Assembly (NCBI RefSeq): GCF_001905385.1
Contig: NZ_LIPF01000002.1
Coordinates: 682,001 to 746,000, forward strand
From: Streptomyces sp. CB02414
GTDB lineage: Bacteria; Actinomycetota; Actinomycetes; Streptomycetales; Streptomycetaceae
Length of the DNA stretch: 64,000 nt
Direction of reading: 5' to 3'
Below, in pieces: positions 20,870 through 56,009 of this stretch. The first letter of the stretch is position 1, and every line of letters starts with the position of its first letter. Below the pieces are notes generated by a model. That model had not been told where the DNA came from and did not search any database. It saw only the letters and a program-made list of their open reading frames with translations. A program made the position numbers and the translations under genes.

Positions 20870-21178
20870 TCAGAGCTTGATCTCGATGTCGACACCGGCC
20901 GGGAGGTCGAGTCGCATCAGAGAGTCAACGGTCTTGGGGGTCGGGTCGAGGATGTCGATCAGGCGCTTGTGCGTGCGCATCTCGAAGTGCTCGCGCGAGT
21001 CCTTGTACTTGTGCGGCGACTTGATGACGCAGTACACGTTCTTCTCAGTGGGCAGCGGCACCGGGCCCGCGACCGACGCACCAGTGCGGGTCACCGTCTC
21101 GACGATCTTCTTCGCCGAGCTGTCGATGACCTCGTGGTCGTAGGCCTTGAGCCGGATGCGGATCTTCTGTCCCGCCAT
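20870..21178 (-). CDS. rpsJ: 30S ribosomal protein S10
   Basis: A 102-residue S10, first gene of the cluster and the NusG/NusB contact for antitermination. It is [21 protein letters not shown], then [38 protein letters not shown] 21178 matches the family start. Upstream lies a 521-bp regulatory gap and then the divergent ATPase-nuclease gene. tuf and fusA, which often lie close to rpsJ, are not in this window. Confidence 0.98.
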
Positions 21179-21699
21179 GGCTACTTCGTAGTCCTGTCTC
21201 TCGTAACGCTCTGGTACCCGGCGGTTCCTTGCAGTCCCGCTCCCCCTCCGACCCACGCGGTCGGGCGTGTCGCACTCCCGCTGACACAGATGTCCCTTGT
21301 TCGAACATCCCTGCTCTGGGAGGTGCGGGCCCTTCCGGTACCGCGGACCGGGGGCGAGAGGCCCACCGGGCGCCTGGCCGGTACCCCGCTGACACTTCCC
21401 GGAAGATTCCCGTACGTCCGCCCCTGATCAGGGACGACGAGTACTGTGGGACTCGCTTCCGGTCCTCCCGGCGGGAGGCGCGCAGCATCGGCACTCGACC
21501 GAGCAACCCCGTTAGTCTGCCATACGGGGCGGGATGCTGGCCAATCGGGCCGGAGAGAATACCCCGGGGGTGGCGGAGATCAAACCCGGGGCCTGCGGAC
21601 GCGTCCTCCTCCTTCGGGCGACCTCACCGGGTTGCGGCACGCGGTGCGGTGGGAGCAGGGCAGACTGCCCCCACGATCACAGCACAGAAGGGCCCGGTC
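21179..21699. promoter_or_regulatory. divergent leader of the S10 operon
   Basis: This 521-bp noncoding stretch lies between rpsJ (minus) and the ATPase-nuclease gene (plus). A candidate minus-strand promoter has TTGGCC at 21544-21539 and CAGACT at 21519-21514 with a 19-nt spacer. That would give a leader of over 300 nt, long enough for autogenous control. A perfect 10-bp palindrome, TGTTCGAACA, lies at 21298-21307. I do not see a protein-coding frame I would support. Confidence 0.45.
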
Positions 21700-23715
21700 A
21701 TGGTCAGGGTGCGGTTGGAGACCAGTCGTGAGCATGTCGCCGAGCTTGCTCGCCTGCGGGATCCGGTCGGCGCGGTCGAAGAGCTGGTGTGGAACGCCCT
21801 TGACGCAGACTGCGCACGCGTCGTCGTCACCCTGGAACGCAACGACCTCGGTGGTGTGGACCGCGTCCGGATCCAGGACGACGGCTACGGGATGTCCGCC
21901 AAGGACTGCGAGGAGTACTTCCGGCCCATCGGCTCGTCCTGGAAGAGGCGGGCGGAGGGCACGCCGGTCAGGAACCGCGCGCTGCACGGCAAGAACGGAC
22001 GGGGTCGGGTACGCGCTTTCGCCCTGGGTGCCTACGTCCGCTGGACCAGCGTGAGCGAGACGGCGCTGGGGAGACGACAACTCGTCATCGAGGCCGACAG
22101 GCGTTCCATGGACGAGTTCGACATCGGTGAGGCCGAGCCGACGACCGAACCCCGGGGCACGCTGTGCGAGGCATTCGGCGGCGAGGAACTGGACGTGCTC
22201 GCTGACGAGCGCGCCAGGTCCTCACTCACCGCGGCTTTCGCCACCTACCTGGAGAAGTACCCGGACGTGCGTATCGATTACGACGGCCGTGATCTCGACC
22301 CGGCGGCAGAGCAGCTGCACGCCGGCGACTACGTCCTCGATGCGTCCTCCGGCGGAGGCGGCGAGCCCGCGAGGCTCAGGGTCGTCGAGTGGCGCAGACC
22401 GGTCCCCCGCGCACTCTTTCTGTGCGACGCCGAAGGCATGTCCCGTGCCCAGCTCAAGCCGGGGATCCAGGCTCCTGGCTTCGAGTTCACAGCTCACCTG
22501 AGCTGGGGCGGCTTCGAGGACGTCGACTCCGAGCAGCTCGCCTTCACCGACTGGGCGCCTGATGGCCCTCTGACCGAGATGCTCGCGGCAGCCCGTGAAC
22601 AGTTGCGCACGCACTTCCGGGCCCGTGTCGACGAACGGCGACGCGAGCAGGTCGCCGAGTGGCGACGTGATGGCATCTACCCGTACGCCACCGACCCAGC
22701 CGACGAGAGGCAGCGGGCGGAGCGCGAGACCTTCGACGCCGTGGCCACCACTGTCTTCCGGCACCTGCCGAAATCCAAGGGCACGCGCAGAACAACCTTC
22801 GCACTCCTGCGATCCGTGCTCTCGCACGAACCCTCGGACGTGCTGCGGATCGCGGACGAGCTCTTCGCGCTCTCGAAGCAGGAGAGAGACGAGCTGATCC
22901 GGCTCCTGGAAAGGACCACCCTCTCGGCACTGATCAAGGCCTCGACCGCAGTGGCCGACCGCATCGACTTCCTCACTGCTCTGGAGCACCTCGTCTTCGC
23001 TCCCGAGACGAAGCCGCGGGTCAAGGAACGGGACGAACTCCACCGCATCCTGGAGGACCGCTGCTGGGTGTTCGGCGAGGAGTACGCACTGCACGTCAGT
23101 GATCGCAGCCTCCACGAGGTACTCGTCCAGCACTGCCGGCTGCTCGGCCGCGACGCTCCCGCACCAGGGCCCGTACTGCGCGAGGACGGGCGGCCCGGCC
23201 GGGTCGATCTCATGCTGTCCCGCGCCGCACGGCACCGGAAGGGAGAACGCCATCATCTGGTCGTCGAACTGAAACGCCCCGCCGTCGTTCTCGGCATGGC
23301 GGAGTTCAGCCAGATCAGCAGCTACGCGGAAGCGGTGATGTCCGACGACCGGTTCCGTGATCCGGCAGTGACCTGGGACTTCTGGCTCGTCGGCAACGCC
23401 ATGGACAACGCCCTGCGGCAGCTGGCCCACCAGACGGACCGCGTCCCTGGATGCGCAGTCTCCGCCCCCCGCTTCCGGATCATGGTGAAGACGTGGGGAG
23501 AGATCATCGAGGACTGTCAGGAGCGCCTGCGCTTCCACAGCGAGCAGTTGGAATACCAGTCCTCCACGGAGCACGCCATGGACTACCTGGTCCGCAACCA
23601 TGGCGACGCGGTGGCGGAGCTGGTGGGTGACGGGACGATTCCCGCTCCTCGGGACACCGGCGCCCACATCTCTCGAGTCGAGGCTCGAACGGACAATGGG
23701 ATCACGCCACCATGA
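21700..23715 (+). CDS. GHKL/Hsp90-type ATPase fused to a PD-(D/E)XK (Shedu/DUF4263-like) nuclease
   Basis: A 671-residue two-domain protein. Residues about 1-200 form a GHKL ATPase: the N box EELVWNALDADCARV (Glu28, Asn32), the G1 box QDDGYGM at 59-65, and a glycine-rich lid GKNGRGRVRAF at 97-107. A middle region (200-430) includes a charged helical part. Residues about 445-600 look like a PD-(D/E)XK nuclease: LHRILEDRCWVFGEEY opens it, then RVDLML with Asp503, VVELKRP with Glu523 and Lys525, and Gln538 in FSQISSYAEAV. That order is the DUF4263/Shedu pattern. ATG 21700 has GAAGGG 7 nt upstream. An immune (anti-phage) role is inferred from domains and from the remnant helicase behind it. DNA repair or a stress role is possible. 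Confidence 0.8.
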   Translation: MVRVRLETSREHVAELARLRDPVGAVEELVWNALDADCARVVVTLERNDLGGVDRVRIQDDGYGMSAKDCEEYFRPIGSSWKRRAEGTPVRNRALHGKNGRGRVRAFALGAYVRWTSVSETALGRRQLVIEADRRSMDEFDIGEAEPTTEPRGTLCEAFGGEELDVLADERARSSLTAAFATYLEKYPDVRIDYDGRDLDPAAEQLHAGDYVLDASSGGGGEPARLRVVEWRRPVPRALFLCDAEGMSRAQLKPGIQAPGFEFTAHLSWGGFEDVDSEQLAFTDWAPDGPLTEMLAAAREQLRTHFRARVDERRREQVAEWRRDGIYPYATDPADERQRAERETFDAVATTVFRHLPKSKGTRRTTFALLRSVLSHEPSDVLRIADELFALSKQERDELIRLLERTTLSALIKASTAVADRIDFLTALEHLVFAPETKPRVKERDELHRILEDRCWVFGEEYALHVSDRSLHEVLVQHCRLLGRDAPAPGPVLREDGRPGRVDLMLSRAARHRKGERHHLVVELKRPAVVLGMAEFSQISSYAEAVMSDDRFRDPAVTWDFWLVGNAMDNALRQLAHQTDRVPGCAVSAPRFRIMVKTWGEIIEDCQERLRFHSEQLEYQSSTEHAMDYLVRNHGDAVAELVGDGTIPAPRDTGAHISRVEARTDNGITPP

Positions 23716-24070
23716 CTGCCTGCGGAGCAGGCAACGTCACCCCCGAGGCGGAGAAGATGTCGGCGGCGAGCATGGCGTCACCGCGCGCCGCCATCCTGAT
23801 TCGCAGCGCCTCGGCCGCCAGCCGGTACAGCCCAGGGTCGGCGTCAAAGCCGCCCTCCGCTCCGGGGGCGGACTCGGCCAGCCCCGCCTCGTCGTCCTGG
23901 TAGAGGATCCTCTCGTCCACGGTGCCGTCGGGCCGACGGTAGGTGACCTGCGCCGCCGTCAGCCCGTACATCCGCACCGCGACGATCGTGACGTCGCCGT
24001 CGGTAACGATGCCCGACACGGTCCGCCCCGCCGTCAGATCACCGAGGCGGAGCCGACCCCGCAAAGGCAT
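23702..24070 (-). pseudogene. N-terminal remnant of a SNF2/DEAD-type helicase
   Basis: A 122-residue frame from ATG 24070; ATG 24088 or GTG 24124 are alternatives. The pattern LRLGDLTAGRTVSG, TIVAVRMYG, VTYRRPDGT, ILYQDDEAGL and then FDADPGLYRLAAEALRIRMA matches, from memory, the first 100 or so residues of large bacterial SNF2-type helicases with a DUF3883-like context. In those, a PLPHQ motif and the P-loop follow. Here the protein stops just after LPAPQ, before any helicase motif. Its 3' end overlaps the end of the ATPase-nuclease gene by 14 bp, tail to tail. A stand-alone small protein is possible, but a truncated gene fits better. Confidence 0.5.
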
Positions 24071-24196
24071 CCCCGTTTTCCCCCGCATCCCTTGATCCCG
24101 TCCGTGAAGGTGCGGTGAAGGCACCTTCTCCCGATGCCCATGATGCCGTAAGGGAAGAACGGGGTCACGGAGAGCACGGAACCCGCATCGTCTCGA

Positions 24197-26335: not shown

Positions 26336-29300
26336 TCACTTGTCACACTTGGGCGGCGGAAGCACCCGTTGCTTCTTGATGTTGTCGATCATTTTTGCCT
26401 TCTTGAGCTTGGTGAGATCACCCTGCGTGACGCTCTTCGACGGATAAGAAGACTGAACGTGCCCGTGGTAGAGCTCCTTGACAATATTGCCTTCCTTGTC
26501 GGTGATCGCCCGGTGCCGGTCCAGCACAACGATCTCGTTGTTCACATGGTCCACGCCGAGGCGCCGGGTGACGTCAGGGTTGTTCGGGTCCATGTCGATG
26601 GACCGGTCCAGCGCGGCTTGGCCGTTGCTGGGTGCACGGCTGACCTCGCCCTTGGCCGATGAGCTGGAGCCTGCGCCGTGCTTGCTGTACTCCGAGTCGT
26701 CGTAGACCCGTTCCGGGCCGGCGTCGTCCTCCAGGCCGAGCGGGTCGCTCCAGCGAAGCGGGTTGTCGACGTACGCTTGGTGGTTCGGAGCGGGAGCCAG
26801 GCCGAGCGGGTCGGGTGACAGGTAGCTCGCGCTGTCCGGGTCGTAGTAGCGCGACAGGTTGTAGTGCAGGCCGGTTTCCGCGTCGCGGTATTGCCCGGGG
26901 AAGGACAGCGGACACAGGCCGCCGTCGTCGGTCAGAGGCCTCCCCCACAGGCTGGTGGCGGACCGCCAGGCGATTGCGCCGTCCTCACAGACCAGCTCGC
27001 TGGGGGTACCGGCCAGGTCGGTGACGATCGCGTAGAACTGCCTGTCGACGTCCCCCTGGCCGTCGGTGCGCCACCGCCTCCGCAATTGGGCAGCCACCCG
27101 GTGGGTGCCCGGTTCCCAGTCCCAGGTGTCGGTCTCCACCAGCCCGTTCCGGAGCGTCTGCTGTTCCGCGAGGTTGGTGGAATCCCAGGTGAAGAGAATT
27201 TCGTCGGCGACCGCCCCGTTCTCGTCCAGCCGCGCCTTGGCGGTGCGTCGCCCGAGGACGTCGTAACGATAGCGCCATACACCACTGTCCGGCGTCTCGG
27301 CCTCAATGAGCCGGTCCTCGGCGTCCCAGGTGTACGTCCAGATCCTGCGCAGCCCGGACAGCGTTCGCCGGATCACTCGGGCCACGCGCCCCTGGGCGTC
27401 GTGCTCGTATGTGCTACGGCCCGCCGCCGTGGCCTTCGTGCCGGAGTGCCGCAGTGTGCCCTGCGCGTCCTGTCCACCAGGAGCGGGGTGAGTGGCGGCA
27501 GTGAGGTTGCCCAGCTCGTCGTAGGCGTACGTCTCGGTCCAGGTACTGGCCGACACGTGGGTGACACGGCCGACGCGGTCGAGGCCGAACCTGCGGGTGC
27601 CTCCCAGCCGGTCGGTGATCGCGGTGACGTGGCCGTCCCCGCGGTAGGCGTACGAGCGGACCTGGCGCACGTCGGCACCCCCCTGCGTGCCGGCACTGAT
27701 GGCCTGTTCGACGAGGCGGTGCCCGGCGTCCCAGGACTGTGTCAGCATCGCTGCCCCGGCCAGGCCGCGGGCGGTTTCCCGGCCGGCCGCGTCGTGGGTG
27801 AAGGTCAGCTCTCCGCCGTCGGTGACGAGCGACGTGGGCAGGCCCGCCGAGTCGTACGACCAGCGCGAAGTGGCGCCGGACGGCGTAGTGCGCCGTGTCC
27901 GTCGGCCCAGCAGGTCGTACTGGCTGGTGACCGTCCGACCGTCAACGGTCTCGGTGACGATCCTGCCCAGGGTGTCGTAGGTGTAGGCGACCCTACTGTT
28001 GGAATTCACGGCTTCGGTCAGGCGGCCGACGACGTCGTAGCTCAGGGAGGTGACGGCACCGTCGTCCGTCCGCGCCGTCAACACCCGCCCGGCGGTGTCG
28101 CGGGCGAGGTGAACCCTCTGCCCGGCGCCGTTGGTCCGTTCGATCTGGCGGCCGGTGGGATCGAGGACATAGCCGAGTGTGCGACCGTTGAAGTCCGTTT
28201 CGCCGATCAGACGGCCTGCCGTGTCGTACTGGTAACTCCATTCCTCGCCGAGCGGGTTGGTCACACCGACAATTCGCAGCTCCGCGTCATGTGTGAAGCG
28301 GTAACAGGTGCCGTCCGGGTCGGTCCGGGCACTCGGCAGGTCGAAAGCGCCGTACTCGAAGGCGGTGACGAAGCCACCAGCGTCGCGGTGCGAGGTGAGA
28401 TTGCCCTCGGCGTCGTACGACCATGTCTCCCGACCGCCGTCGGCGCGCTCCCGCCACAGCAGCCGACCTTCCGGATCCCACCCCTGCCTCACGCTTCCGC
28501 CGACCGGGTCGTCGATCCGCACGACACGACCGAACGCGTTCCGGTGTGCGGTGACGAAGCTCCCGCGCGGGTCAACGGCGCGCACCTGGAGCCCGGCGTC
28601 ATCCGTTTCGAAGCGGAACGTGTTGCCCAGCGCGTCGGTCTGCGCGACCCGGTGGCCACGGTCGTCGTAGGTATACGAACTCACCGCACCCAGCGGATCA
28701 GTGCTGGTGACGAGGTTGCCTCGATCGTCGTAGGCGCATTCCCAGCGCGCACCGTCCGCTTCCGTGATGGCGACGGGCAGCGCATCGTCGTACTCCAACT
28801 GAACGCTAGTCCCGTCCGGTCGGTCCATCCGGAGCGGCTGGCCGTGCGCGTCCAGCGTGAAACGGGTGGTGTTGCCCAACTCGTCGGTACGGGAGAGCAA
28901 CCGTCCGAACCGGTCCCACTCCGTGTGTGTGTTGTGACCGAGGGGATCGCACACAGTGACCAGTTGGTACAGCTCGTTGTACCTGTACGTCGTCGTGGCG
29001 CCGAGCGCGTCCGTGTAGTGCGTCTCGCGGTTGTCGGTGTCGTACTCAATCGTGCAGGAAAGGCTCCCGTCAGCGCCTTCACCACGAACACAGCGGTCCA
29101 GGGAGTCGTAGGTGAAGCGGTACCAATAGCCATTTCGATCGGTCCACGACGTGATGCGAGCACGGTCGTCGTACGAGAGCCTCAGTGGCCGCCCGCTCGA
29201 GTCGTGGATTTCGGTGAGGTTTCCTTCAGGGCTGTAGCCGAAGTCCCGTAGAAGCGTGCCCTCGGGGCCGTCCTCCGTGTTGCGCAGCCGGAGGCGGGTG

Positions 29301-30895
29301 ACACGTCCGTCGGATGTGTCAACGTGCACGTGTCGACCACCGGAGTCGCGCACCGCCACTGGGGTGCCGTCGGGGTCGCGAACGAAGTCGACGCGGTAGC
29401 CGTTGCGGTCGGTGATCGCGGCCAGGGGCAGTGTGAACACCTCGTCCTTCGCAGCCGACCGTGACTGAGGCGCGAAGTGACGAGTGATTCCCGTGATGGG
29501 ATCGGCGATGCGAAGAGGGGCACCCGGTGTGCCGTCCCAGTCCAGTGACCAGCGCGGGCCCTCCATCGGCATGACGGAGGTGCCCGGTCGAGGCACCGGG
29601 TAGAAGAGCAGCATGCCGTCCTCGGTGGCGAAGACGGCGCCTTCGTCGTCCAGCTCCAGGCGTTCGTCCAGGGTGGAGGCCCAAGACGGACCGAAGCAGC
29701 GCCCCCACTGGTACGTGGACAGGTAAGTGCGGCGCAAGGCCAGAGGGAGCAGGCCGGGAAGTTCGACATCGGTGTGCTCCATGAGCATTTCACCGGAGAC
29801 CATGTCGATCGGGTCGCCGTTCTTGCAACGGCCCTTGGATGGCTTCGCCTTGGCCGCGGCATCATCGGCTTCCCTGCGCAGCCCCTTACCAAGCCCCTTT
29901 GCCATGGCCTTAAGGCCACCCGCGCCCAGCGCCTTCGCCCCCCTTGCGAGACCACCTAGAGAGGTGAGCCCCTTCATACCGGGTATGCAGTCCAGCGCGG
30001 CGAACCCGACATCCCATAGTGACGCTTGGCCCTTGCTGTATTTGTTGAGCGTGTCGGCGAGGACGACGAGGGCCGCGACCAGGACGATCGCGCCCAGGAT
30101 CGGGCCGCCGATGATCATCGCGACGATGCCGACGACCGCGACGACGACCTTGCAGACGGCGACGATCTCGTCCCAGTTGTCGGTGAACCAGTCGCCGACC
30201 TCCTCCCACCAGGACCGGTTCTGGATGCCGGCGTCCGACGCCTCGTCGATCTTCGTCTTGGCCTCGCGGGCCGCGTCCTCGCGCATCTTGCGCGCGTCCT
30301 CGGCCATCTTCTTCGCCGCGTCCAGCGCGCTCTGCGCGTCGTCCACGGCCGACTGGGCGTTGGTCTGGGCAGTCCTGGCGTGCTGGACGTCGCGGGTGGC
30401 GGCGCGGACCTTCGCCTCGTCGGGCTTGTCGGCGTCCGACTTGCTGCCGGTCGGGTCGTCCTTGTACTTGTCGGCCTCCTTCGACGCCCGCGTCACCCAG
30501 GACTCGGCCGAGGACAGCCTCGACTGGGCGGAGGTGAGGTCGTCCCGGGCCTCCCGCGCCTTGCGCAGCGCCTTGTCGGCGAGGGTCTGCGCCCGCTCCA
30601 GCTTCGGCCAGAAGTCGGCGAGGGCGTCGCCGCACATGCCGTAGGACTTCTCGAGTTTCTTCAGGTTCTTCGGTACGCCCGAGAACTCCTCCTTGAAGAC
30701 GGCGGCCGACTTGCCCGCCCACTCCTCGAGCGCGCCCTCCCCCGCCATCCCCTTCACCAGACGCAACGCCTCGGACACGTCGTCGGCGAAGTCGTGCAGC
30801 GTCTTCGCGAGCGTGCGCACCCGCTGCGGATCACCGGGGGTCGGGTCCTTGTCCAGGTCCAGGACATGCCAGTCACTCGGCCTGTGGCCCGCCAT
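26336..30895 (-). CDS. WXG100-headed RHS-repeat polymorphic toxin
   Basis: A 1519-residue toxin. Residues 1-110 form a WXG100-like helical domain (EEWAGK with W59-A-G61), followed by a coiled coil (110-220) and a hydrophobic segment (243-285). DUF6531 starts near 357 (CKNGDPIDMVSGEM). Tens of YD/RHS repeats follow to the core RYYDPDSASYLSPDPLGL. The last 130 residues are the toxin tip (GQAALDRSIDM, RLGVDHVNNEIVVLDRH, ELYHGHV, LTKLKKAKMI), which from memory resembles polymorphic toxin type 17. No signal peptide is present. The WXG head suggests type VII or related export. ATG 30895 follows GGGGGTAACGGGG. The frame is open to 30949. Confidence 0.88.
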   Translation of the reverse strand: MAGHRPSDWHVLDLDKDPTPGDPQRVRTLAKTLHDFADDVSEALRLVKGMAGEGALEEWAGKSAAVFKEEFSGVPKNLKKLEKSYGMCGDALADFWPKLERAQTLADKALRKAREARDDLTSAQSRLSSAESWVTRASKEADKYKDDPTGSKSDADKPDEAKVRAATRDVQHARTAQTNAQSAVDDAQSALDAAKKMAEDARKMREDAAREAKTKIDEASDAGIQNRSWWEEVGDWFTDNWDEIVAVCKVVVAVVGIVAMIIGGPILGAIVLVAALVVLADTLNKYSKGQASLWDVGFAALDCIPGMKGLTSLGGLARGAKALGAGGLKAMAKGLGKGLRREADDAAAKAKPSKGRCKNGDPIDMVSGEMLMEHTDVELPGLLPLALRRTYLSTYQWGRCFGPSWASTLDERLELDDEGAVFATEDGMLLFYPVPRPGTSVMPMEGPRWSLDWDGTPGAPLRIADPITGITRHFAPQSRSAAKDEVFTLPLAAITDRNGYRVDFVRDPDGTPVAVRDSGGRHVHVDTSDGRVTRLRLRNTEDGPEGTLLRDFGYSPEGNLTEIHDSSGRPLRLSYDDRARITSWTDRNGYWYRFTYDSLDRCVRGEGADGSLSCTIEYDTDNRETHYTDALGATTTYRYNELYQLVTVCDPLGHNTHTEWDRFGRLLSRTDELGNTTRFTLDAHGQPLRMDRPDGTSVQLEYDDALPVAITEADGARWECAYDDRGNLVTSTDPLGAVSSYTYDDRGHRVAQTDALGNTFRFETDDAGLQVRAVDPRGSFVTAHRNAFGRVVRIDDPVGGSVRQGWDPEGRLLWRERADGGRETWSYDAEGNLTSHRDAGGFVTAFEYGAFDLPSARTDPDGTCYRFTHDAELRIVGVTNPLGEEWSYQYDTAGRLIGETDFNGRTLGYVLDPTGRQIERTNGAGQRVHLARDTAGRVLTARTDDGAVTSLSYDVVGRLTEAVNSNSRVAYTYDTLGRIVTETVDGRTVTSQYDLLGRRTRRTTPSGATSRWSYDSAGLPTSLVTDGGELTFTHDAAGRETARGLAGAAMLTQSWDAGHRLVEQAISAGTQGGADVRQVRSYAYRGDGHVTAITDRLGGTRRFGLDRVGRVTHVSASTWTETYAYDELGNLTAATHPAPGGQDAQGTLRHSGTKATAAGRSTYEHDAQGRVARVIRRTLSGLRRIWTYTWDAEDRLIEAETPDSGVWRYRYDVLGRRTAKARLDENGAVADEILFTWDSTNLAEQQTLRNGLVETDTWDWEPGTHRVAAQLRRRWRTDGQGDVDRQFYAIVTDLAGTPSELVCEDGAIAWRSATSLWGRPLTDDGGLCPLSFPGQYRDAETGLHYNLSRYYDPDSASYLSPDPLGLAPAPNHQAYVDNPLRWSDPLGLEDDAGPERVYDDSEYSKHGAGSSSSAKGEVSRAPSNGQAALDRSIDMDPNNPDVTRRLGVDHVNNEIVVLDRHRAITDKEGNIVKELYHGHVQSSYPSKSVTQGDLTKLKKAKMIDNIKKQRVLPPPKCDK

Positions 30896-31211
30896 CCCCG
30901 TTACCCCCGTCAGCTCACATGTCGCATCAGCAACCACCCGTACGCACATGTGAACTTACAAGGGGCGGCGGTTCGATGAAAGGCGCTCCCGTTCCTAGTT
31001 CGACTCACGGAGCACCGGTCTCAGCAGGCTCAGTCGTGCAGACCCGGGAGCGGCACCACACCGGGGAATGCCGTCACTGTGGCGCGGACGTCCATGTTTC
31101 CTCCCTGATCAGGTGCACGGGTGTTCATGTCCTCTCGGGCGGGCTCGGAGCCGGTCAGTGCCATACCTCGGGGATCAGGGCCGCCGCGACGTGATCGACT
31201 CCTACCATCCT
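30896..31211. promoter_or_regulatory. leader of the RHS toxin gene with spaced inverted repeat
   Basis: This 316-bp region upstream of the toxin has no gene I can support. TCACATGT at 30915-30922 and ACATGTGA at 30946-30953 form an 8-bp inverted repeat separated by 23 nt, placed 20-58 bp before the start. It could be an operator or an RNA hairpin that controls the toxin. Confidence 0.35.
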
Positions 31212-46368: not shown

Positions 46369-46388
46369 TCGGCTGCTCCCCACTGTTG

Positions 46389-49300
46389 TCACGGCACGTT
46401 GTCGATCCGGGCGCTGCCGGCGCCCTTGAGATTACCGGCCCACTTCAGCGTCAGATAATCAGGCGCCTTGTTGTCCCCCGAATAGTGCGCGGTCACCTGG
46501 TAGAAGATGGTCTCCCCGGTCTGGACCCGCTTCTCGAGCGCGCTCTCGTACTTGCTCATCCTGGGTGTGTTGGCCCTGGCGTGGAGCGGGACCAGGTTGC
46601 GCAGGTCGTTGCCGTCGCCGCCCAGCTGCCGTGCCAGCAGGTGGCCGCGGTGCAGGCCGGCACTTCCCCGGTAGCCCTGGGGGATGTGGTTGTAGTCCAC
46701 CGGGTACTGGGTCGGCGAGCCGATGATCCGTGTGTCCTTGCTGTCGAGGACCCACTCGGACTCCACACCGAGGTGGCCGTCCACCTTCTCGGTGGACACA
46801 TAGTTGTAGTCGCCCTTGTTCAGACAGGCGACGACCCCCTGGGCGCGCCCCAGGCTGTCCAGCGGCAGGTAGTGCACCGCCGTGTTGCCCTTGCGGCAGT
46901 TCTCCCGCCGGACCGGGGAATCCGTCGCGGTGTCGAACTCGTAGTCGCTGCTCGGCGTGAGCCAGCGCGACTTGTCGTACTCGGCGGCGAAGCCGGGGGT
47001 GGTCGCCTCGTAGGGCGTGGGCGGAACGAGGTCCTTGACCGACGTGGTGAACGAGTCGTCGACGAACTTCTCGTGCTCCGGGTCCACCTCGGCCTTGCTC
47101 GGCGGCTTGGGCGCCTCCTTTCTCAGCGCATCGGCGATCATGTCCGCCCACGGGGGCGGGGGCGGGGGCGGCGGTGGCCCGGCGTCCACGCAGCCGTAGA
47201 CACACGGACCGAGCCCGCCGCCGGGGCCGTATCCACCGCCGCCACCACCGCCGGAGCCGAGGTAACCGATGCGGTAGCCGCCGCCCGGACTGACCTGGGA
47301 GCCGCGGTACGGGCCCGTGGAGTAATTGTTGTACGGCCGGATCGGGGCGAAGTGGGTCCTGGGCTTGTTCGTCAGGCTCCGGTACAGGTCGTACGCGTCC
47401 CAGGCCCAGCCGATCGGTCCGAGGGCCCGCTTGCCGGCGAACCTGAGTACCTTGCCGGGGTGCCGAGCGATCCAGCGGACGCCGGACTTGGCTGCCCGGC
47501 CCGCGGAGTTGGCGTAGCGCTCGGCCTCGTCGATGCCCTTGCTGATCCAGTCCGTGTCGACGCACACGCCCAGGAAGCAGGTGTCGTGCCCGCTGGGATC
47601 GGTGTTCAGCAGCGGACTGCCGCCGGCGTAGGTGTACCGGTTGGCGTTGACGGACGGGGCGGGGCTCAGCGTCCAGGAGTCCCGGGAGGAGAAGCCGCCG
47701 GCCGCCGGGTCGTACCAGCGGGCGTGCATGTTGACCTGCCCGGTGCCCGGGTCGGTGTACTCGCCCTGGTAGCCCAGCGGGCCCGTGCTGCCCGCGGAAC
47801 CCGTCACCTCGCCGAAGGGCGAGTAGCCCTTCGACCCGGCCACCGTGCCGGTCGCGGCGGTGAAGGCACCGACGATGTCGCCGTGCAGGTTGGACAGCAG
47901 GGCCGCCGCGTTCGTGCCGTCCGGGTGCGCCGTGGACAGGGCCTCGCCGGACGGGTCGCGGAAGACCGGTCCTGCGGCCGTGGCCACGGGGTCGTTGGAC
48001 TGGTCGGCGTACGTCAGCGACGCGTCGCCCTGTCGTACCAGGCGGCCCAGCGCGTCGTACCGGTACGCCGTGCCGTCCGCCGACACCATCCGGCCCAGCG
48101 CGTCGAACTGCGCCGAGTGAGTGCCACTCGCGTCGCTGCTGCCGGTGCGGGAGCCGCGCGCCGCATACGTGTACGTGACATCTCCGGCCGCCAGCAGGCG
48201 GTTGCGCGCGTCGTACGTCGCCGTCACGCCGCCCGCGCCGGTGCGGTTGCCCGCCGCGTCCCACGTGTACGCCGTCTCGGTGCCGTCGGCGGCGGTCCAG
48301 CCGGTCAGGCGGCCCGCCCAGTCGTAGCCGTAGGACTGGGAGCCCGCGCCCACCGTGCCGGTGGTGGTCTCACCGGTGAGGCGCGAGGCCGCGTCGTAGT
48401 CGTAGGCGGCGGACGCCGTCGTCGTACCGCCCGGCGCCTTCAGGGTGTCGGAGGTGACGCGGTCCAACGGGTCGTAGGTGTACACACGCGTCGCGCCCGT
48501 GCCGCCGTAGGCCACCGACGTCAGGCGCGAGGCCGTGTCGTAGTTGTACGTCCGGGTCGTCTTCGTCAGCGGGTCGGAGACCGTCCCCAGGCGGCCTGCC
48601 GCGTCGTAGCCGAAGGTGCCGTCGCCCGCCGCGTCCGTGCGGCCGGTCAGGCGGCTCTCCTCGTCGTAGGTGAAGGTGGCCGTGCCGGACGGGCCGTCGG
48701 CGGAGAGCAGGTTGCCGCGGTCGTCGTAGGTGTAGGTGTTCGTGCCGCCGGGCGCGCTCGCCGAGATGAGGTTGCCCGTGGCGTCGTAGCCGTAGGTGTC
48801 CGGGCTCGTCGCCGCCTCGGCGCCCGAACCGGTGGACCGGGTGACGCGGCCCAGCGCGTCGAAGGTCCGCTCGACCGTCACACCGCCCGGCTGGAGCTCC
48901 TTCACCGGCAGCCCGACCGCGTCGTACACGGTCGTCCAGGTGCGGTCCGCCGCGTCCGGGTGGGCCTCGGTGGCGGGTTCCAGCACCGACTCCAGTCTGT
49001 TCCGGCTGGTGAAGCCGTACCAGGTGGTGTTGTTCCTGCCGTCCGTGAGGCGGGTGCGGTTGCCCGCCGCGTCGTAGCCGTACGTCGTGGTGATCGACGT
49101 GTCGGCGTCGACCGGCTCGACCAGCTCGGTCAGGCGGCCCGCGGCGTCGAACGTCTGGTGGACCGTGTGGCCGAGGGCGTCGGTGACGGCGACGGGGTTG
49201 CCGGCCGCGTCGTAGGCGGAGGTCGTGGTGCGCAGGACCGTGCCCGCGCCGTCCTCGTCGCGGACCTGCGTCACGCGGCCCGCCGGGTCGTACGTGGTGC

Positions 49301-52300
49301 TCGTGGTGCGTCCCTGCGGGGTCGTCGCGGAGGTGGGCAGGCCGGTGGGGCCGTAGCCGTACGCCGTGACGCCGCCCGCGGTGTCCGTGATGGTGAGCGG
49401 GTCGCCCGCCGCGTTGTAGGTGCCGGTGGTGGTCAGGCCGGTCGGGCTCTTCGTCGAGCGCAGGTTGCCCGCGTCGTCGTAGGTGTACGTCGTGGTGAAC
49501 GCGCCTGGCGCCGGGCGGCGTTCGAGCACCGTCGAGGTGATCTGCCGGCCGAGGTCGTCGTAGGTGGCCTCGGTGCGGACGCCGGTCGGGCCGGTGGCGG
49601 ACAGCTGCTCGCCCAGCAGGTCGTAGGTGAACGTCGACACCGGGGCGGGGGCGCCCTCCTCGGGGGCGGGCAGCGTCACCCGGGCGAGGTTGCCGAGCTG
49701 GTCGTAGGCATAGGACGTGACCCGGCCCAGGGGGTCGGTCTCGCTCACCAGGTTGCCCGCCGCGTCGTACGCGCGGGTCGCCGTGCCGGGCAGCGCGGAC
49801 GTGGCCCGGGCCGGGGTGTAGTCGGGCAGGGTCGTGCTCGTGGCGCGGCCCGCGCGGTCGTACGCGGTGTGGGTGACGTGGCCGTTCGGGTCGCGGACGT
49901 CGGTGGTCTCGCCGAAGGCGTTGTAGCCGACGGTGGTGGCCGGGCGGACCGTCACCGCCTCGGTCTGCCGGGTCTCGGCGGTGACCGGGGCCTCGCGGGT
50001 GAGGACCGGGCGGCCGAGCACGTCGTAGGCGTGCTCGGTGGTGAACGCGGCGGGGTCGGCGCCGGTGGCGTTGCCGCGCGGGCCGGTGGTGGCGACCACC
50101 AGGCCGCGGTCGTCGACCTCGTAGGTGGTGACCAGGTCGGCGGTGCCGTTCTCCACGGTCTGCCGGGTCAGGTCGCCCGTGGTGTCGCGGTCGTAGGTGA
50201 CCTTCTCGGTGCGGGCGCCGCCCGCGCCCGTGCGGGTGACGGTCCGGACGGCGCCGCCGGCGTCGTAGGTGTAGGCGGTGCGCCGCGCCAGGCCGCCCGG
50301 GTCGAGGACCTCGGCGGTGACGCGTCCGGCGGCGTCCACCTCGTAGGCGGTGGTGACCGCGCCGTCGCCGGTGGTCTCGCGGACCAGGTGGCCGGCGGCG
50401 TCGTAGGAGCGGTCGCTGAGGACCAGGTCGCGGGTGGTGCCGTCCGGGTCGTGGAAACCGGTGAGGATCTCCTGGGCGGGCAGGCCGTCGTCGTAGTAGG
50501 TGTGGCGGGTGGTGCGGCCCATCGCGTCGGTGTGCTCGGCCAGACGGCCGGCCTGGTCGTACGCGTAGGAGTCGAGCACCACGTCGCGGGGATCGGAGGG
50601 ATCGCCGGGGTCGCCGGTGAAGTCGGTCAGCGTGACCGTGGCGAGGGAGCCCAGCGCCGTGTAGGTGTACCGGAAGGTCCGGTCGCCCGGCAGGGTGCGG
50701 CTGGTCTGCCGCCCCTGGATGTCGTAGGTGTAGGTCTCCTCCGCCCCCTCGGGGCCCGTGAGGACGGCGAGTCTGCCGTGCGTGTCGTAGGCGCGCTTCG
50801 TGGTGCGGGCGGTGTCGCCGCCGAGGAGGTCGGCGACGGACTCCGTCAGGACGCGGCCGTCGTCGTCGTAGGTGTAGGTGGTGCGGGCGCGGTGCTCGGT
50901 GCCGGTGACCCGGTTCGTGGTGACCGGGCCGGTGACCGTCAGCGGGCGGGACTCGCCGTCGTACGTGGTGGTCGTGGTGACGCCGTCCGGGTGCGCGTCG
51001 GAGACCGCCTTGGCGCCGGTCTCGCGGCCGAGGGCGTCGTAGGTGTACTCGGTGACGGCGCCGCGGGGGTCGGTAACCTTCGCCAGGTCGCCGGCCGCCG
51101 TGTACTGGCGCCGGGTGACCGCGCCCCGGGCGTCGGTGCTGGTGGCGAGCAGACCCGCCGGGACGGTGCCGCCGCCGACGGCGGTCTCGGTGCCATCGGT
51201 GAAGGTGAACGACTCAGTGCCGGCCGGGGTGGTGGTGGAGGTCCGGTCGCCGTGGGCGTCGTAGGCGTGGGTCGTCTTGTAGGTGTCGTCCGTCGCGCTC
51301 GCCGAGCGGGCGTCGCGGACGGCGGTGAGCTGGTCGTTGCGGGGGTCGAGCGGGTCGTCGGCGTTCAGGAAGTAGCTGTTGTACGAGGTGTGGCAGGTGC
51401 CGTCGTCACCGGTCTCGCGGCAGGTCGTCTGCGAGATCCGGTTGCCGCGTTCGTCGTTGCCGAACCGGGTTACCGAGCCGTCGGGGCCGGTGGTGGCCGC
51501 GAGGAAGCCGCCGGTGTCGTAGGCGAAGCGCGCGGTGTGGCCGAGCGCGTCCGTCTGGGCGATCAGGCGGTTGCCCTGCAGCGGGTCGTAGGTGTAGCCG
51601 GACTTCCCTTCGCCGGGGCCGGTGACGGTGACGGTGAGGGTGGTGGTCCCGGCGACGGCCGGCTGGTCGTCGGTGGCGGGGGCGCCCTCGGTGCCGGTGA
51701 CGGCGAGGTCGGAGAGCCGGTAGGTGCCGCCGTGGGCGTCCGTGTACGAGGACACCCGGTCGTGGACCGTGTCGTAGGCGACTTCGGCGTGCACCCGGCC
51801 GTCGGGCCGGGTGACCTTGGTGAGCTGCTGGGCGACGTCGGCGGCGGCGTGGTGCTCGGCGACGGTGCGGGCGCCCAGGGGGCGGGAGTAGACCGCGGCC
51901 TCGTCGATGTCGCCCGTGAAGTGGCCGACGGTGCCGGTGGTGGCGGGCCAGTTCTTCCAGTAGCCGGCGCCGAGGTAGACGAAGCGCTGGTCGTACTGGG
52001 TGATCTCGCCGCTGAGGCTGGCGGTCTTCTTGCCGTCGAGGTAGAGGGTCTGGGTGTTGCCGGCCGCGGTGAGCGCCGCGTGGTGCCAGGCGCCGTCGTT
52101 GACGGGGGCGGCGGAGGTCAGGGGCGCGGAGGTGCCGTTCCAGAACTCGCCGCGCAGCTTGCCGTCCGTGCCGACGTAAAGCGCAGGGGTGTACTTGCCG
52201 GTGGTGGCTTCTTCCAGGGTGTGGTCCTGGTAGCTGAGGAGGACACCGCTGCCGGTGGTGCGGAACCACAACTCGGCGGTCAGGTACGGGGTGTCGGAGA

Positions 52301-55300
52301 CCACCTGGTCCGGCAGTTGCACGTAGGACGTGCTGCCGTTGAAGGCGGCCGACGTGTCGGGGCTGCCCGCGAGCGCGCCGGCGCCGCCGAGCGTGACGTC
52401 GCGGTAGGTGGCGGCGTGCTCGTCGCGGTCGAGCGGCAGGTCGCTGGCCGCGTCGGTGGCGCCGTCCTTCTCGTCGAGGCGCCAGTAGGAGAACGGCCCG
52501 GCGTCGTGGACGACGGTGCGGTGGTGGGAACCGTCGCCGTAGCCGTAGGTGGTGCAGGCGCCGAGGGTGTCCTCGGGGCCGCAGACCAGCGTGAGCCGGT
52601 CGCCGTCGTACGTGTACTCCCAGGTCAGCGGGTCGGCGCCGGGGGTGGGCGGGTCGGTGCTGACGGTGGCGACGTGGCCGCCGGCCCAGGTCAGGTGCAG
52701 GGCTCGGCCGCCCGTGGCGGTGACGGTGGTGAGGTCGTCATTCGCGTCGTAGGTGAGGGACTGGGCGCGGCCCCGGTAGTCGGTGACCCCGGTGAGCCGG
52801 CCGCCGGCGTCGAAGACGTAGTCGGTCTGCTCCTTATCGGTGAGCCGCCAGCCGCCGCCGGTGGTGGCGGTGAGGGTGGAGAAGCTGCCGTACGGGGGCG
52901 CGTAGGTGCCGTCGGGATTCTTGCCGAAGCGGACCTGCCGGCCGGTGGGCAAGGTGGCGACCACGTTGCCGGTGCCGTCGTCGTCCGGCTCGATCCGCAT
53001 GTCGTAGCGGGTGGACCAGCCGGCACCGAAGGCGTTGTCGGCGCGCGGGTCACGGCTGTTGTAGGTGCGGGTGACGGTCAGGCCGGGGCCGACCGTGGCG
53101 ACGGTGGCGTCGGTGTCGGTCGTGGTGTAGTTGCCGATGCCGGGGTCGATCTCCCGGCCCGAGCCGCCGGGTCCCTGGCCGCCCAGGTGCGAGGTGACGG
53201 CGGGCTGCTCGACGGCGGTGGTGAAGGTGTAGAAGGGGCTGAGCGGGGTCGACAGGCCGTTCTCCCGTGCCTTGACCCGCCACAGGTACTGCTTGCCCCA
53301 GGTCAGCTTCCCGGCCGGGACGTTCCAGGTGCGCTTCCCGGTCCAGCCGGAGTTGACGCAGTCGGTGGGGGCCTTCTCAGTGCCGGCGCAGACCTCGAAC
53401 CAGTGCTCGATGCCGGCCCCGGATGGGTAGTGGTCGACGCTCTCCGAGCCGGTGAACAGCGCGGGGGTGAGGCTGCCGACCTGACCGCCCGGGGTCGGGT
53501 ACACGTTCGTGATGCGCGGGCCGACGTCCTGGGAGGTGACGGTCACCGTGGTCACGGGCACGCTCTCGCTGGAGAACCACTTCTGGTCCCGCAGCCGCTG
53601 CATATCGAAGTTGACCTTGTACTTGCCCGGCGGCAGCGGGGGTATCCGCGCGCTCAGCGTGGTGTCGTCGCCCGGAGTGAGGCGCTCGTTGAGGCGGGTG
53701 AACGCCGCCTGTCCCATCAGCGCGCCGGTGCTGTAGTTGCGCACGCGGGTGCCGAGGCGGACCTCGTTCCAGCCGAGCGGCTCCCAGGTGAAGTCGCCGA
53801 GATTTTTGACCTTGACGCTGACCTCGCCGCTCTGGCCGCCGGTCAGCGGGGCGGTCTGGGAGCCGACGGTGTACTGCGCTCCCCACGGGCTGTGGGTCAC
53901 GGACAGGTACGGCTTGTTGGAGGAGTTGGCGCTGCCGAACCGCTTCCAGGGGCCGCTGGTGTCGAAGTCGGCCCACAGGGCGAGGCCCTGGTTGGCAATC
54001 GAGCCGTTGACCCAGCCCTCGATGAGGTCGGTGCCCTTCTTGCCGAGGTCGAGGACGCGCCACTTGGAGCCGCCGCAGTTCTCGCCGTAGGCGAAGGAGT
54101 CGGAGGCGATCAGGTGATTGAAGCTGGGCGGGCGGTTGTCCCAGGTGACCGTGGTGGAGCTCCACGAGCCGGTCACCCGGTGGACGGTCATCTTCTGGGC
54201 GCTGCAGCTGGAGGACCAGACGTTGTACAGGCCGAGGTCGGCGTCGAGGATGTACCGGTTCTTGAGCCTGCTGGTGACGTTGTCGAACTTGAGGTAGCTG
54301 ATGGCGCGGCTGGTGCCGGCGTCGTAGCTGCCGACCTTGAGCTCGTCGTCGCCGGCGAAGTTGCTGTCCGGCCAGGAGTTCTGGACGAAGGAGTCGCCGT
54401 TGTCGTCGATGTCTTCGACGCTGGGGTCGACCTGGACGGGGTAGACGCGGTCCGGGGAATCCAGCCAGGCCTCGTCCAGCAGAACCTTCAGCGACCAGTG
54501 CCCGTCGCTCTCCACGAGCCGGTAGTCGACGTCGCCGGACAGGGCCGGGCCGCCGGTCTGCGCGTCGTGGCCCGAGTCCTCCATCCATCCCTTGGGGACG
54601 ACGGCCTGGACCTGGCCGGCCGTGTCCTTCAGCAGCACGGCTCCATGGGCGTCGAGCGACGGGGTGAGGCCGTCGAGGTGCAGCGGGAACGTCCACTCGG
54701 CGGGCGCGTCGGGCGAGTTGAGGACGATCGTCTCCTTGACCGCACCGTGCTCGGCCTCCAGGACGAGGTCGGAGTCCGGGCGGACGTCCGCGTAGTGCGC
54801 GCTGTCGTCGCGTACGTCGGCCTCGGCACCGGACGCGCCCGACAGGCCGAAGCCGACCTCGTGCCGTCCCTCGTCCACGCGCAGCGTGGCCAGTTGGGGG
54901 TCGTCGCCCCGTCGCGCCAGGGTGAGCCCGGTGTCGTCGGCGGCGGCGGCGAGTCGGTCGCTGCCGGCCTTCGCCCTCTCCGGGGCGCCCTTGGCGTCGG
55001 CCGCCGGGACGAGGGAGGTGTCGATCGGCTGCCAGGTGCCGTCCGCGTCCTGGAAGTGCACCTGCTCGGTGTAGACGCGGGTGGTGCGGGTGCCGTCGGT
55101 GTTGCGGAACTCCTTGGAGTTGACGGTGCGTTCGCCGGGCAGCTCGACGCCGGCGGCGGGGTCGTAACCGGTGGGTGCCTGCGGGTCCGCGTCCGTGGTG
55201 CGGGGGGCCAGGGCGGGCGTGCTGATCTTCGGCTCGACGGGGGTGAACGCGGCGCCCGGGTCGTGCAGGGCCAGCGCGTCCTCGTCCACCGCCAGGTCGG

Positions 55301-55553: not shown

Positions 55554-56009
55554 GGAACTCCTTGGAACCACAAGGCCGATCGCCCGCACGTGGGGCGATC
55601 GGCCGGAAGCAGGGGGCCGGGTGCGCTCGTACCGGAAGAGGCGGGAGGCACCCGGGCGGCGTACACGCTAGATGATCAGGCGGCCACTGAACCATGACCA
55701 TGACAACGGATTTATAACGACATCCCCCGACATGACCACCCTCCACAGGCCGGTCACAGGATCTCCAGAGGGGCCGCTACCCTCCCTGACCTGCGATAAA
55801 CAAATTCAGCCAGGGCTCAGCAAGCCACCGGATCCGCCCTCCGACCGTGATCAAGTCGAGACGATCACCTGGATAACCTGCGGCGTCATCGTGTGGAGCG
55901 GGCATTCCCCCACAGCGGTCCACACCTCCGTCACGAGGCCCGGGCGGCACTTTTGCGCCAATCGGAACCTCCGTACGGCCGCAGTGAAGTGAAGGGCAGT
56001 CAGGCAGTC
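55554..56009. promoter_or_regulatory. divergent region between the WapA-like and FG-GAP genes, with 12-bp hairpin
   Basis: GGCCGATCGCCC at 55574-55585 and GGGCGATCGGCC at 55593-55604 pair perfectly around a 7-nt loop, just before the ribosome binding site of the toxin gene on the minus strand. Further right, around 55700-55760, is an AT-rich patch (TATAAAT on the minus strand) likely to hold the promoters. No gene is supported here. Confidence 0.45.

What the first reader, a model, noticed from the sequence alone, without database searches (positions are those of the whole stretch)
21700..23715. GHKL ATPase fused to a Shedu-like PD-(D/E)XK nuclease beside the S10 operon
The sequence shows a Bergerat-type ATP-binding site (Glu28/Asn32, QDDGYGM, glycine-rich lid) and a C-terminal nuclease core (Asp503, Glu523-x-Lys525, Gln538) preceded by an FGEEY-type entry helix. 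DUF4263/Shedu nucleases are anti-phage effectors that carry varied N-terminal sensors. A GHKL sensor would let ATP-driven dimer closing gate DNA cleavage. A truncated helicase remnant lies tail to tail with it, as in a decayed defence island. Defence function is inference. This is my best candidate for an under-described system in the window.
Basis: partly seen in the sequence, partly recalled or inferred. Interest (0 to 1): 0.78.

Follow-up and report, generated by a model that had tools for sequence, protein, structure and literature searches.

The report
Standalone ATP-gated DNA-cutting defence nuclease
A Streptomyces-type gene encodes an ATPase joined to a DNA-cutting domain, a mobile and probably anti-phage enzyme whose layout was already described and tested in another bacterium, so it is a solid new member of a known kind rather than a new system.

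Summary
Window 21700-23715 (+) encodes 671 aa with the named residues in place. The N-terminal half is a MutL/MORC/TRAP1-type GHKL ATPase with a transducer; residues 422-650 model as a PD-(D/E)XK nuclease. Catalytic residues of both halves are invariant in alignments of 22 and 33 rows; the gene is under purifying selection.

It is accessory and mobile: 26 of 392 same-genus genomes, 71 plasmid records, 35 of them covering at least 80%, 2 phage records, 40 viral-contig loci. Neighbours vary.

The architecture is not new: it matches paraMORC3 (2008) and VcSduA, a GHKL-Shedu fusion shown in 2025 to block phages. 'Shedu' is only partly supported: no SduA_C match in 22 of 22 members, suggestive profile comparison, structural Z 9.2 to SduA but 10.9 to NucS. 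The E-to-K spacing (496-519) differs from VcSduA's 530, so this may be an untested branch.

The S10 position reflects an expanded tuf-rpsJ interval: 42.9 kb here, 0.7-9.7 kb in 13 of 20 congeners. The helicase remnant is real but unshared. Defence function is inference.

The parts
21700..23715 (+). Whole gene: GHKL ATPase-PD-(D/E)XK nuclease, 671 aa, stop included
   Evidence: dN/dS 0.11-0.26
21700..22296 (+). GHKL (Bergerat) ATPase domain, about residues 1-199; E28/N32, D60-x-G62-x-G64, lid G97/G100/G102
   Evidence: Pfam; invariants; fold
22297..22554 (+). Transducer (S5-type) domain, about residues 200-285; boundary set by eye from the model
   Evidence: model; alignments with MutL/TRAP1/MORC are long enough to include it
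22567..22998 (+). Helical linker between ATPase and nuclease, about residues 290-433; about 370-410 at lower confidence
   Evidence: model
23017..23550 (+). PD-(D/E)XK nuclease domain, about residues 440-617; E443, D503, E523-x-K525, Q538, Y542
23702..24124 (-). Remnant of the N-terminus of an HmaA-type SNF2/DEAD helicase, convergent with and overlapping the end of the gene by 14 bp; considered not part of the system
   Evidence: no relative in other GHKL loci
20870..21178 (-). rpsJ (S10), first gene of the divergent S10 operon; neighbour only
21179..21590 (.). Upstream region of rpsJ kept in congeners; similarity to the window ends 371-427 bp upstream of rpsJ in 20 of 20 gene-less genomes, before the gene starts at 522 bp

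Best explanation
It is a standalone DNA nuclease of the paraMORC3/VcSduA type. Two copies would dimerise through the GHKL domains. ATP binding would close the dimer like a clamp around DNA, and the transducer and helical linker would pass that movement to the two PD-(D/E)XK domains, which then cut invading DNA. With no methylase found beside it, self and non-self are probably told apart by the state of the DNA (ends, topology or a phage-specific feature), not by a protective mark. Shown here: the two folds (as models), intact invariant active sites, purifying selection, mobility, no fixed partner in the neighbourhoods opened. Inferred: dimer clamp, DNA cleavage, trigger, anti-phage function.
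For: Folds and residues. Selection. Patchy distribution: 3 of 61 genomes and 26 of 392, the window's own included in both. Mobile carriers: 71 plasmid records, 40 typed conjugative, but 25 of the 71 are Campylobacter records, and the 21 of those listed match over the GHKL part only; 2 phage records; 40 viral-contig loci. Placement as cargo: among tail and baseplate genes of two Pasteurella phage records; behind virB11, one gene before a type IV coupling gene. Defence neighbours in some: dcm and LlaMI-type endonuclease plus drt2, type ISP enzyme, N-6 methylase, PADLOC matches among flanking ORFs (no control set). Published test of the same architecture: VcSduA E27A and K557A each abolish defence (PMC12137116, passages).
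Against: No phage or enzyme assay exists for this protein. Several homologues have no recognisable defence neighbour (for example). Most of the Streptomyces homologues found in genome contigs (9 of 12) sit at one chromosomal site, which could also suit a housekeeping role. The E-to-K spacing differs from VcSduA, so transfer of its result is not assured. The structural match of the nuclease half is only moderately above the background stated by the tool (best Z 7 to 8 for models without a clear match).
Confidence: 0.68

Rival explanations
1. It is an orphaned restriction enzyme of the HgiDII/BbrUII type that cuts a specific site and works with an unlinked or lost methylase.
For: The GHKL part matches NCBIfam BbrUII/HgiDII at 9e-13. 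The same genome holds such a protein beside an ORF that reads as a cytosine methylase.
Against: The match is 47.6 bits against a cut-off of 550 and covers residues 26-120 only. The nuclease of the second protein is not recognisably the same: hhalign probability 2.8%, score 21 against 17 for the best of 30 shuffles. Three of four plasmid relatives of the second protein that were opened have an adjacent cytosine methylase; five neighbours of the window's gene were scanned and none matched one.
Confidence: 0.1
2. It is a DNA repair or topology factor, comparable to MutL or NucS/EndoMS, kept as an accessory repair enzyme.
For: Best structural scores of the nuclease domain are NucS/EndoMS, Z 10.9 and 10.8; the ATPase resembles MutL.
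Against: Patchy presence, plasmid and phage carriage and decayed copies do not suit a repair role; the NucS match covers only 106 residues against 152 for SduA.
Confidence: 0.1
3. It serves the mobile element that carries it, for example in exclusion of competing phages or plasmids or in maintenance of replicon ends on linear plasmids.
For: Cargo position in phage records and beside a transfer region; near a helicase on 5 of 10 Streptomyces plasmid loci opened.
Against: Also chromosomal in Streptomyces and on circular replicons, so not tied to linear ends. Exclusion of other elements is itself a form of defence and overlaps the main reading.
Confidence: 0.12

Closest known systems
VcSduA of Vibrio cholerae (GHKL N-terminal Shedu, type I-D), PMC12137116
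   Same: Single gene; N-terminal GHKL with the catalytic Glu at 27 (28 here); C-terminal PD-(D/E)XK with catalytic Lys; acts without a partner; sparse (about 1.2% of genomes in that paper).
   Different: Published E27 and K557 give a spacing of 530; here 497, and 496-519 in the 47 distinct family rows. The VcSduA sequence was not in hand, so identity was not measured. Its nuclease is called DUF4263; no PF14082 match here.
paraMORC3 family, PMC2292703
   Same: GHKL plus S5 plus C-terminal restriction-fold domain with E-D-ExK; a subset standalone, without conserved neighbours; sporadic spread.
   Different: Described as prevalent in proteobacteria and Bacteroidetes; here an actinobacterial chromosomal clade and linear plasmids. 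Their alignment was not available for comparison.
Shedu SduA (B. cereus 8ti8/8ti9, E. coli 8ps4/8ps5)
   Same: Nuclease domain aligns over 143-152 residues at Z 7.6-9.2; a shared pattern of entry helix and W-FG in the profile comparisons.
   Different: N-terminal half here is a GHKL ATPase; 9-13% identical; not recognised by PF14082. In one search the active-site strands are not aligned in register (D503 strand against the VELK strand).
HgiDII/BbrUII restriction enzymes (NF050001)
   Same: GHKL ATPase followed by a nuclease.
   Different: Adjacent cytosine methylase in 3 of 4 plasmid relatives opened; the match to this protein is limited to the GHKL part.

Membership tests
GHKL ATPase superfamily | N-box Glu/Asn, DxGxG motif, glycine lid | tested here: met
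   E28/N32, D60/G62/G64, G100/G102 invariant; HATPase_c_3 62.5 bits, cut-off 25
GHKL ATPase superfamily | Bergerat fold with transducer domain | tested here: met
   MutL, TRAP1, MORC, prob 1.00 in the 50 rows shown
GHKL ATPase superfamily | ATP-dependent dimerisation and hydrolysis | not testable with these tools
   only a monomer model was made
PD-(D/E)XK nuclease superfamily | D, ExK, Q residues in the conserved order | tested here: met
   D503, E523, K525, Q538 invariant in 22 and 33 rows
PD-(D/E)XK nuclease superfamily | Core fold | tested here: met
   NucS Z 10.9, SduA 9.2, BspD6I 8.5, FokI 8.4; Foldseek alone best E 1.3e-3
Shedu (SduA) | Signature domain SduA_C/DUF4263 (PF14082) | tested here: not met
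   no match in 22 of 22 members at E<=1; 0 matches in the window's whole genome
Shedu (SduA) | Nuclease domain specifically related to SduA | tested here: inconclusive
   hhalign with four chosen SduA_C sequences: prob 80%, score 39 against at most 18 for 30 column shuffles, 48 columns, active-site strands out of register; with all seven, prob 79%, 65 columns; Z 9.2 but NucS higher
Shedu (SduA) | Anti-phage activity dependent on the nuclease | not testable with these tools
   needs a plating assay
paraMORC3 | GHKL + S5 + C-terminal domain with E-D-ExK | tested here: met
   E443, D503, E523, K525 invariant; folds. Sequence match to the original alignment was not tested
paraMORC3 | Standalone gene in the nuclease-bearing subset | tested here: met
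   no constant partner in the 19 annotated neighbourhoods opened
HgiDII/BbrUII restriction enzyme (NF050001) | Full-length match over the curated cut-off | tested here: not met
   47.6 bits against 550, residues 26-120
HgiDII/BbrUII restriction enzyme (NF050001) | Adjacent cytosine methylase | tested here: not met
   five neighbouring window ORFs scanned with Pfam, none a methylase

The most novel reading that the evidence does not exclude
The window's protein belongs to a separate branch of standalone GHKL-PD-(D/E)XK nucleases, neither Shedu proper nor VcSduA nor HgiDII. Its branch uses ATP-driven clamp closing to sense the physical state of DNA (for example free ends) instead of a methyl mark. 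In Streptomyces, whose chromosome ends are protein-capped (recalled, not tested here), this would let it attack uncapped incoming DNA and spare the host, and the tuf-rpsJ junction would be one of its preferred chromosomal homes.
Probability: 0.25. Interest if true: 0.6.

Novelty: new member of a known kind. Interest (0 to 1): 0.34.

Why it matters
It widens a recently validated anti-phage architecture to an actinobacterial chromosomal clade, linear plasmids and many viral contigs. It also poses a defined question: whether this branch, whose nuclease escapes the Shedu profile and whose spacing differs from VcSduA, does the same job. PADLOC gives it only a weak type II restriction match (17.9 bits), so surveys with that library would probably miss it. 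The variable tuf-rpsJ junction may be a useful place to look for cargo genes in Streptomyces.

Tried and rejected
Helicase-GHKL operon: rejected for the window. The HmaA-like ORF found no match at E<=1e-6 in 21 other GHKL loci (L004 and L005 hold only 1.5 kb of flank, others vary) and nothing better than 0.12 in these and 12 more. Among 41 genomes it matched its own and two from other genera of the order and class; the 16-kb and 18-kb stretches fetched around two of those three places held no GHKL relative at 1e-3.

Fixed housekeeping partner: 9 of 12 genome-contig loci have the gene near rpsJ, six within 0.7 kb and three at 5.3-7.3 kb. The other three (L014-L016) show no S10 in the flank held. 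Of the 26 carriers, ten have an rpsJ place in the capped list: G000 and G284 adjacent; G307, G065 and G096 about 340-370 kb apart; G182, G161 and G198 far; G227 and G344 on other contigs. So the site is frequent, not obligatory. The two sets overlap: by coordinates and contig length L007, L008, L012 and L014 look like G284, G397, G103 and G032, so counts must not be added.

PF14082 search: negative. PDB sequence profile of the nuclease half: no nuclease match. Foldseek alone on the nuclease half: nothing at E<=0.001. The viral structure library gave topoisomerases, RIIA and HSP90-like proteins among the named rows of the 50 shown. VcSduA itself could not be compared: I found no copy of its sequence to use. 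The Mol Cell Shedu paper (PMC11805627) is not held.

Rows dropped. From the 22-row alignment: L004 (same coordinates and scores as L014), L009, L011, L016, L013 (match lacks the first 80 residues) and L018 (frameshifted), so the invariance counts exclude decayed copies; L011's core is intact apart from V to I. Of 40 viral loci, 34 were examined; four with a stop in the stretch taken and two duplicates were dropped, leaving 28; 25 entered the 33-row alignment, L068, L078 and L084 being left out as likely near-duplicates. For one search, four of seven SduA_C sequences were chosen after the seven-row alignment looked poor. The 392-genome survey counts matches at E<=1e-30, some partial or interrupted (G148, G198, G227, G329, G330, G397). 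The PADLOC and Pfam scan of neighbours used 128 of 153 candidate ORFs from 38 loci, chosen by length and codon-position G+C, not by annotation.

Papers: PMC2292703 outline, introduction parts 1-2 of 4 and passages; PMC12137116 passages; PMC9519451 and PMC6690266 passages; the rest search listings. Searches on print status: GHKL+Shedu, GHKL+anti-phage, DUF4263+ATPase, paraMORC3 (57), Streptomyces+Shedu, Shedu sensor domains, tuf1/rpsJ, Streptomyces hotspots, MORC+anti-phage. No paper on the tuf-rpsJ junction as a cargo site was seen in those listings; most subscription papers are not held.
Full report
WHAT IS THERE. It lies in an 8.0-Mb genome. The 12 loci found in genome contigs are all Streptomyces (66-91% identity by best segment), and rpsJ is 100% identical in the nine that hold it, so the host is almost certainly Streptomyces (inference). 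dN/dS against nine Streptomyces homologues is 0.11-0.26, with synonymous differences of 0.44-0.59 per site. This is a maintained gene.

N-TERMINAL HALF. HATPase_c_3 matches residues 24-132 at 62.5 bits against a cut-off of 25. A profile of 22 family members finds MutL, PMS2, topoisomerase VI-B and MORC in the PDB. The full-length AF2 model (33-row alignment, pLDDT 84.6, pTM 0.54) matches TRAP1, MutL and MORC over roughly 310-440 alignment columns. So a transducer domain follows the ATPase, and then a long helical linker. The low pTM means that the arrangement of the halves is not reliable.

C-TERMINAL HALF. The separate model of residues 422-650 is confident (pLDDT 92.9, pTM 0.90). VIA-align gives Pyrococcus NucS Z 10.9 (106 residues, 2.2 A), EndoMS 10.8, E. 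coli SduA 9.2 (152 residues, 3.5 A), B. cereus SduA 8.9, BspD6I 8.5 and FokI 8.4. The tool notes that models without a clear match typically reach Z 7 to 8, so these values are moderate; what is persuasive is that nearly all top rows are PD-(D/E)XK enzymes and that the motif residues are invariant. Foldseek alone had no match below 1e-3. A specific tie to Shedu is plausible but not unique. Profile comparison with four SduA_C sequences from related genomes (chosen from seven) gave probability 80% and score 39, against at most 18 in 30 column shuffles, over 48 columns. That alignment covers the entry helix well, but sets the D503 strand against the VELK strand, so the active sites are not in register. 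With all seven the probability was 79% over 65 columns. No PF14082 match was seen in 22 of 22 members; HSDR_N_2 matched 18 of 22 (best 3e-6) and PDDEXK_9 two.

CONSERVATION. E28, N32, D60, G62, G64, K82, G100, G102, E443, D503, E523, K525, Q538 and Y542 are invariant in the 22-row alignment and in the 33-row alignment. The two share eight rows (47 distinct in all), and both leave out decayed copies. The acidic residue of the entry helix is E443; E460 of the FGEEY motif is D in 1 of 22 rows.

DISTRIBUTION. 3 of 61 genomes and 26 of 392 genomes of the genus at E<=1e-30 carry it, the window's own included. Plasmids: 71 records, 35 covering at least 80% of the protein; 25 are Campylobacter records, and the 21 of these listed match over the GHKL part only. 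Phages: 2 Pasteurella records. Viral contigs: 40 loci. Several copies are broken: L018 and L013, G148 and G330. In the tree of 47 rows the window protein falls in a clade of eight Streptomyces chromosomal rows (100/99), joined by one row from another family of the order (100/98) and then by Streptomyces plasmid rows. Elsewhere plasmid and viral rows are intermixed (L022 with L061, L026 with L064, L023 with L056 and L065), as expected for a mobile gene. The program warned of long branches and uneven composition, so deep branching should not be leaned on.

NEIGHBOURHOODS. In 19 annotated neighbourhoods there is no constant partner. Examples: beside an LlaMI-type endonuclease and dcm, with drt2 next to them, in Psychrobacter; directly behind a type ISP restriction enzyme in Phaeobacter; behind virB11 and one gene before a coupling-protein gene in Alisedimentitalea; among tail and baseplate genes in two Pasteurella phage records; downstream of an N-6 methylase in S. 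longwoodensis. Among 128 flanking ORFs from 38 loci, PADLOC matches were scattered: 37 families, 25 shown, 24 of these in a single member. They include dCTPase, PDC-S15, PDC-S20, PifA, PD-Lambda-5_B and methylases. No control set of random ORFs was run, so no enrichment is claimed.

THE S10 POSITION. In 9 of 12 genome-contig loci the gene is near rpsJ, within 0.7 kb in six and at 5.3-7.3 kb in three. Similarity to the window upstream of rpsJ ends at 371-427 bp in all 20 gene-less congeners examined, and at 407-415 bp in the nine carriers (one of which has a further piece); the gene starts at 522 bp. The 20 were taken from the genomes listed, favouring low handle numbers and well-assembled contigs; they are not a random sample. 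EF-Tu lies 0.7-9.7 kb from rpsJ in 13 of those 20 and was not found within about 12.7 kb in the other seven; in three carriers it appears at about 11-18 kb. In the window's genome it lies 42.9 kb away, just beyond the window's end. So the gene sits at one edge of an expanded tuf-rpsJ interval, which also holds an Rhs gene and the helicase remnant. Among 98 ORFs from the first 7 kb upstream of rpsJ in gene-less genomes, which include str-operon genes, PADLOC matched only 7 families. The site is variable, but I do not call it a defence island.

THE HELICASE. ORF 23702-24124 (-) is the N-terminus of a large helicase (PADLOC HmaA 1.9e-17, positions 2-99 of 1176). Relatives sit in open frames of 1187-1253 codons in two genomes of other genera. 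It overlaps the end of the gene by 14 bp. No relative was found in the stretches held of 33 other GHKL loci. Full-length helicases lie beside the gene, or one gene away (L034), in 5 of 10 Streptomyces plasmid loci opened. In L032, L033 and L034 they are 0.7-1.5 kb from a replicon end, in L036 7 kb and in L028 26 kb. Most look like terminal helicases (recalled class), so the adjacency may reflect location only; a functional link is not excluded.

A SECOND PROTEIN OF THIS KIND IN THE SAME GENOME. L006 (G000:C1 around 516931) encodes a GHKL-nuclease beside a divergent ORF that reads as a cytosine methylase (by eye from its PCQGF motif, recalled; not scanned). It matches NCBIfam BbrUII/HgiDII at 2.7e-75 along most of its length, though at 254 bits below the cut-off of 550. 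Its nuclease half is nearer to SduA_C than the window's (probability 83% over 96 columns). Its E-to-K spacing is 528. VcSduA's published residues E27 and K557 give 530, whereas the window's family has 496-519. On this single measure VcSduA resembles the second protein more than the window's family. This is weak evidence, since insertions are common, but it is a reason not to transfer VcSduA's result without a tree.

COMPARISON WITH WHAT IS KNOWN. Iyer and colleagues (PMC2292703; introduction parts 1-2 and passages read) defined paraMORC3 by GHKL, S5 and a C-terminal E-D-ExK domain, with a standalone subset of unclear function. PMC12137116 (passages read) showed that VcSduA, a GHKL-DUF4263 protein, protects against phages, that E27A and K557A abolish this, and that protection was similar at all multiplicities tested. 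Its authors model an entwined dimer with a clamp-like middle domain and hypothesise that the GHKL domain controls the nuclease. The window's gene has this anatomy. I file it as a standalone GHKL-PD-(D/E)XK nuclease of the paraMORC3 kind. I do not file it as Shedu, because the signature profile was tested and not met; it may still work like Shedu.

MECHANISM. Shown: folds (as models), intact active sites, selection, mobility, lack of a fixed partner where looked. Inferred: ATP-driven dimer closing, DNA cutting, defence. The lack of a methylase nearby argues for recognition of DNA state, not of a site. The title of the Cell 2025 paper, seen in a reference list, speaks of DNA end sensing by Shedu; that paper was not read.

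VERDICT. Observation confirmed; interpretation partly supported; a new member of a known kind. The interest lies in the untested branch and in the junction it occupies.

Noticed in passing
L006 (G000:C1:516931 region): A second GHKL-nuclease (BbrUII/HgiDII-like, 2.7e-75) with a divergent ORF that reads as a cytosine methylase in the same genome; probable restriction-modification pair.
   Followed up: partly
window 21179-64000 and G000:C12:746037: The tuf-rpsJ interval is 42.9 kb here but 0.7-9.7 kb in 13 of 20 congeners examined; a variable-size site between two ribosomal operons.
   Followed up: partly
L010:5059-9655, L011:5963-8917: RNA-repair-like genes (MJ1316, 2'-5' RNA ligase and poly(A) polymerase domains in both; RNA ligase and AAA_33 in L010) between rpsJ and the GHKL gene; the same domains occur in the gene-less set, two ORFs each.
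   Followed up: no
L013:6523-9860: Papain-fold glutamine-deamidase domain with a T7SS-type signal domain, and a second such domain in an ORF with Imm35, beside a GHKL gene whose match lacks its first 80 residues.
   Followed up: no
L028, L032, L033, L034, L036: GHKL gene beside or one gene from a DEAD/DEAH or 'helicase associated' protein on linear Streptomyces plasmids; 0.7-1.5 kb from a replicon end in L032-L034, 7 kb in L036, 26 kb in L028.
   Followed up: partly
window 26336-30949 and L099: Large Rhs-repeat gene in the window; an 81% identical stretch lies near rpsJ in a genome without the GHKL gene, so interval contents reshuffle.
   Followed up: no
window 46386-55697: Very long open frames on both strands (3103 and 3066 aa), not analysed.
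   Followed up: no
L026 and L064: A Salmonella plasmid-record copy and a viral-contig copy of the family are nearly identical.
   Followed up: no
L123: A relative of the second protein on an Agrobacterium plasmid lies between a DEAD/DEAH helicase and a nucleotidyltransferase-HEPN protein instead of a methylase.
   Followed up: no
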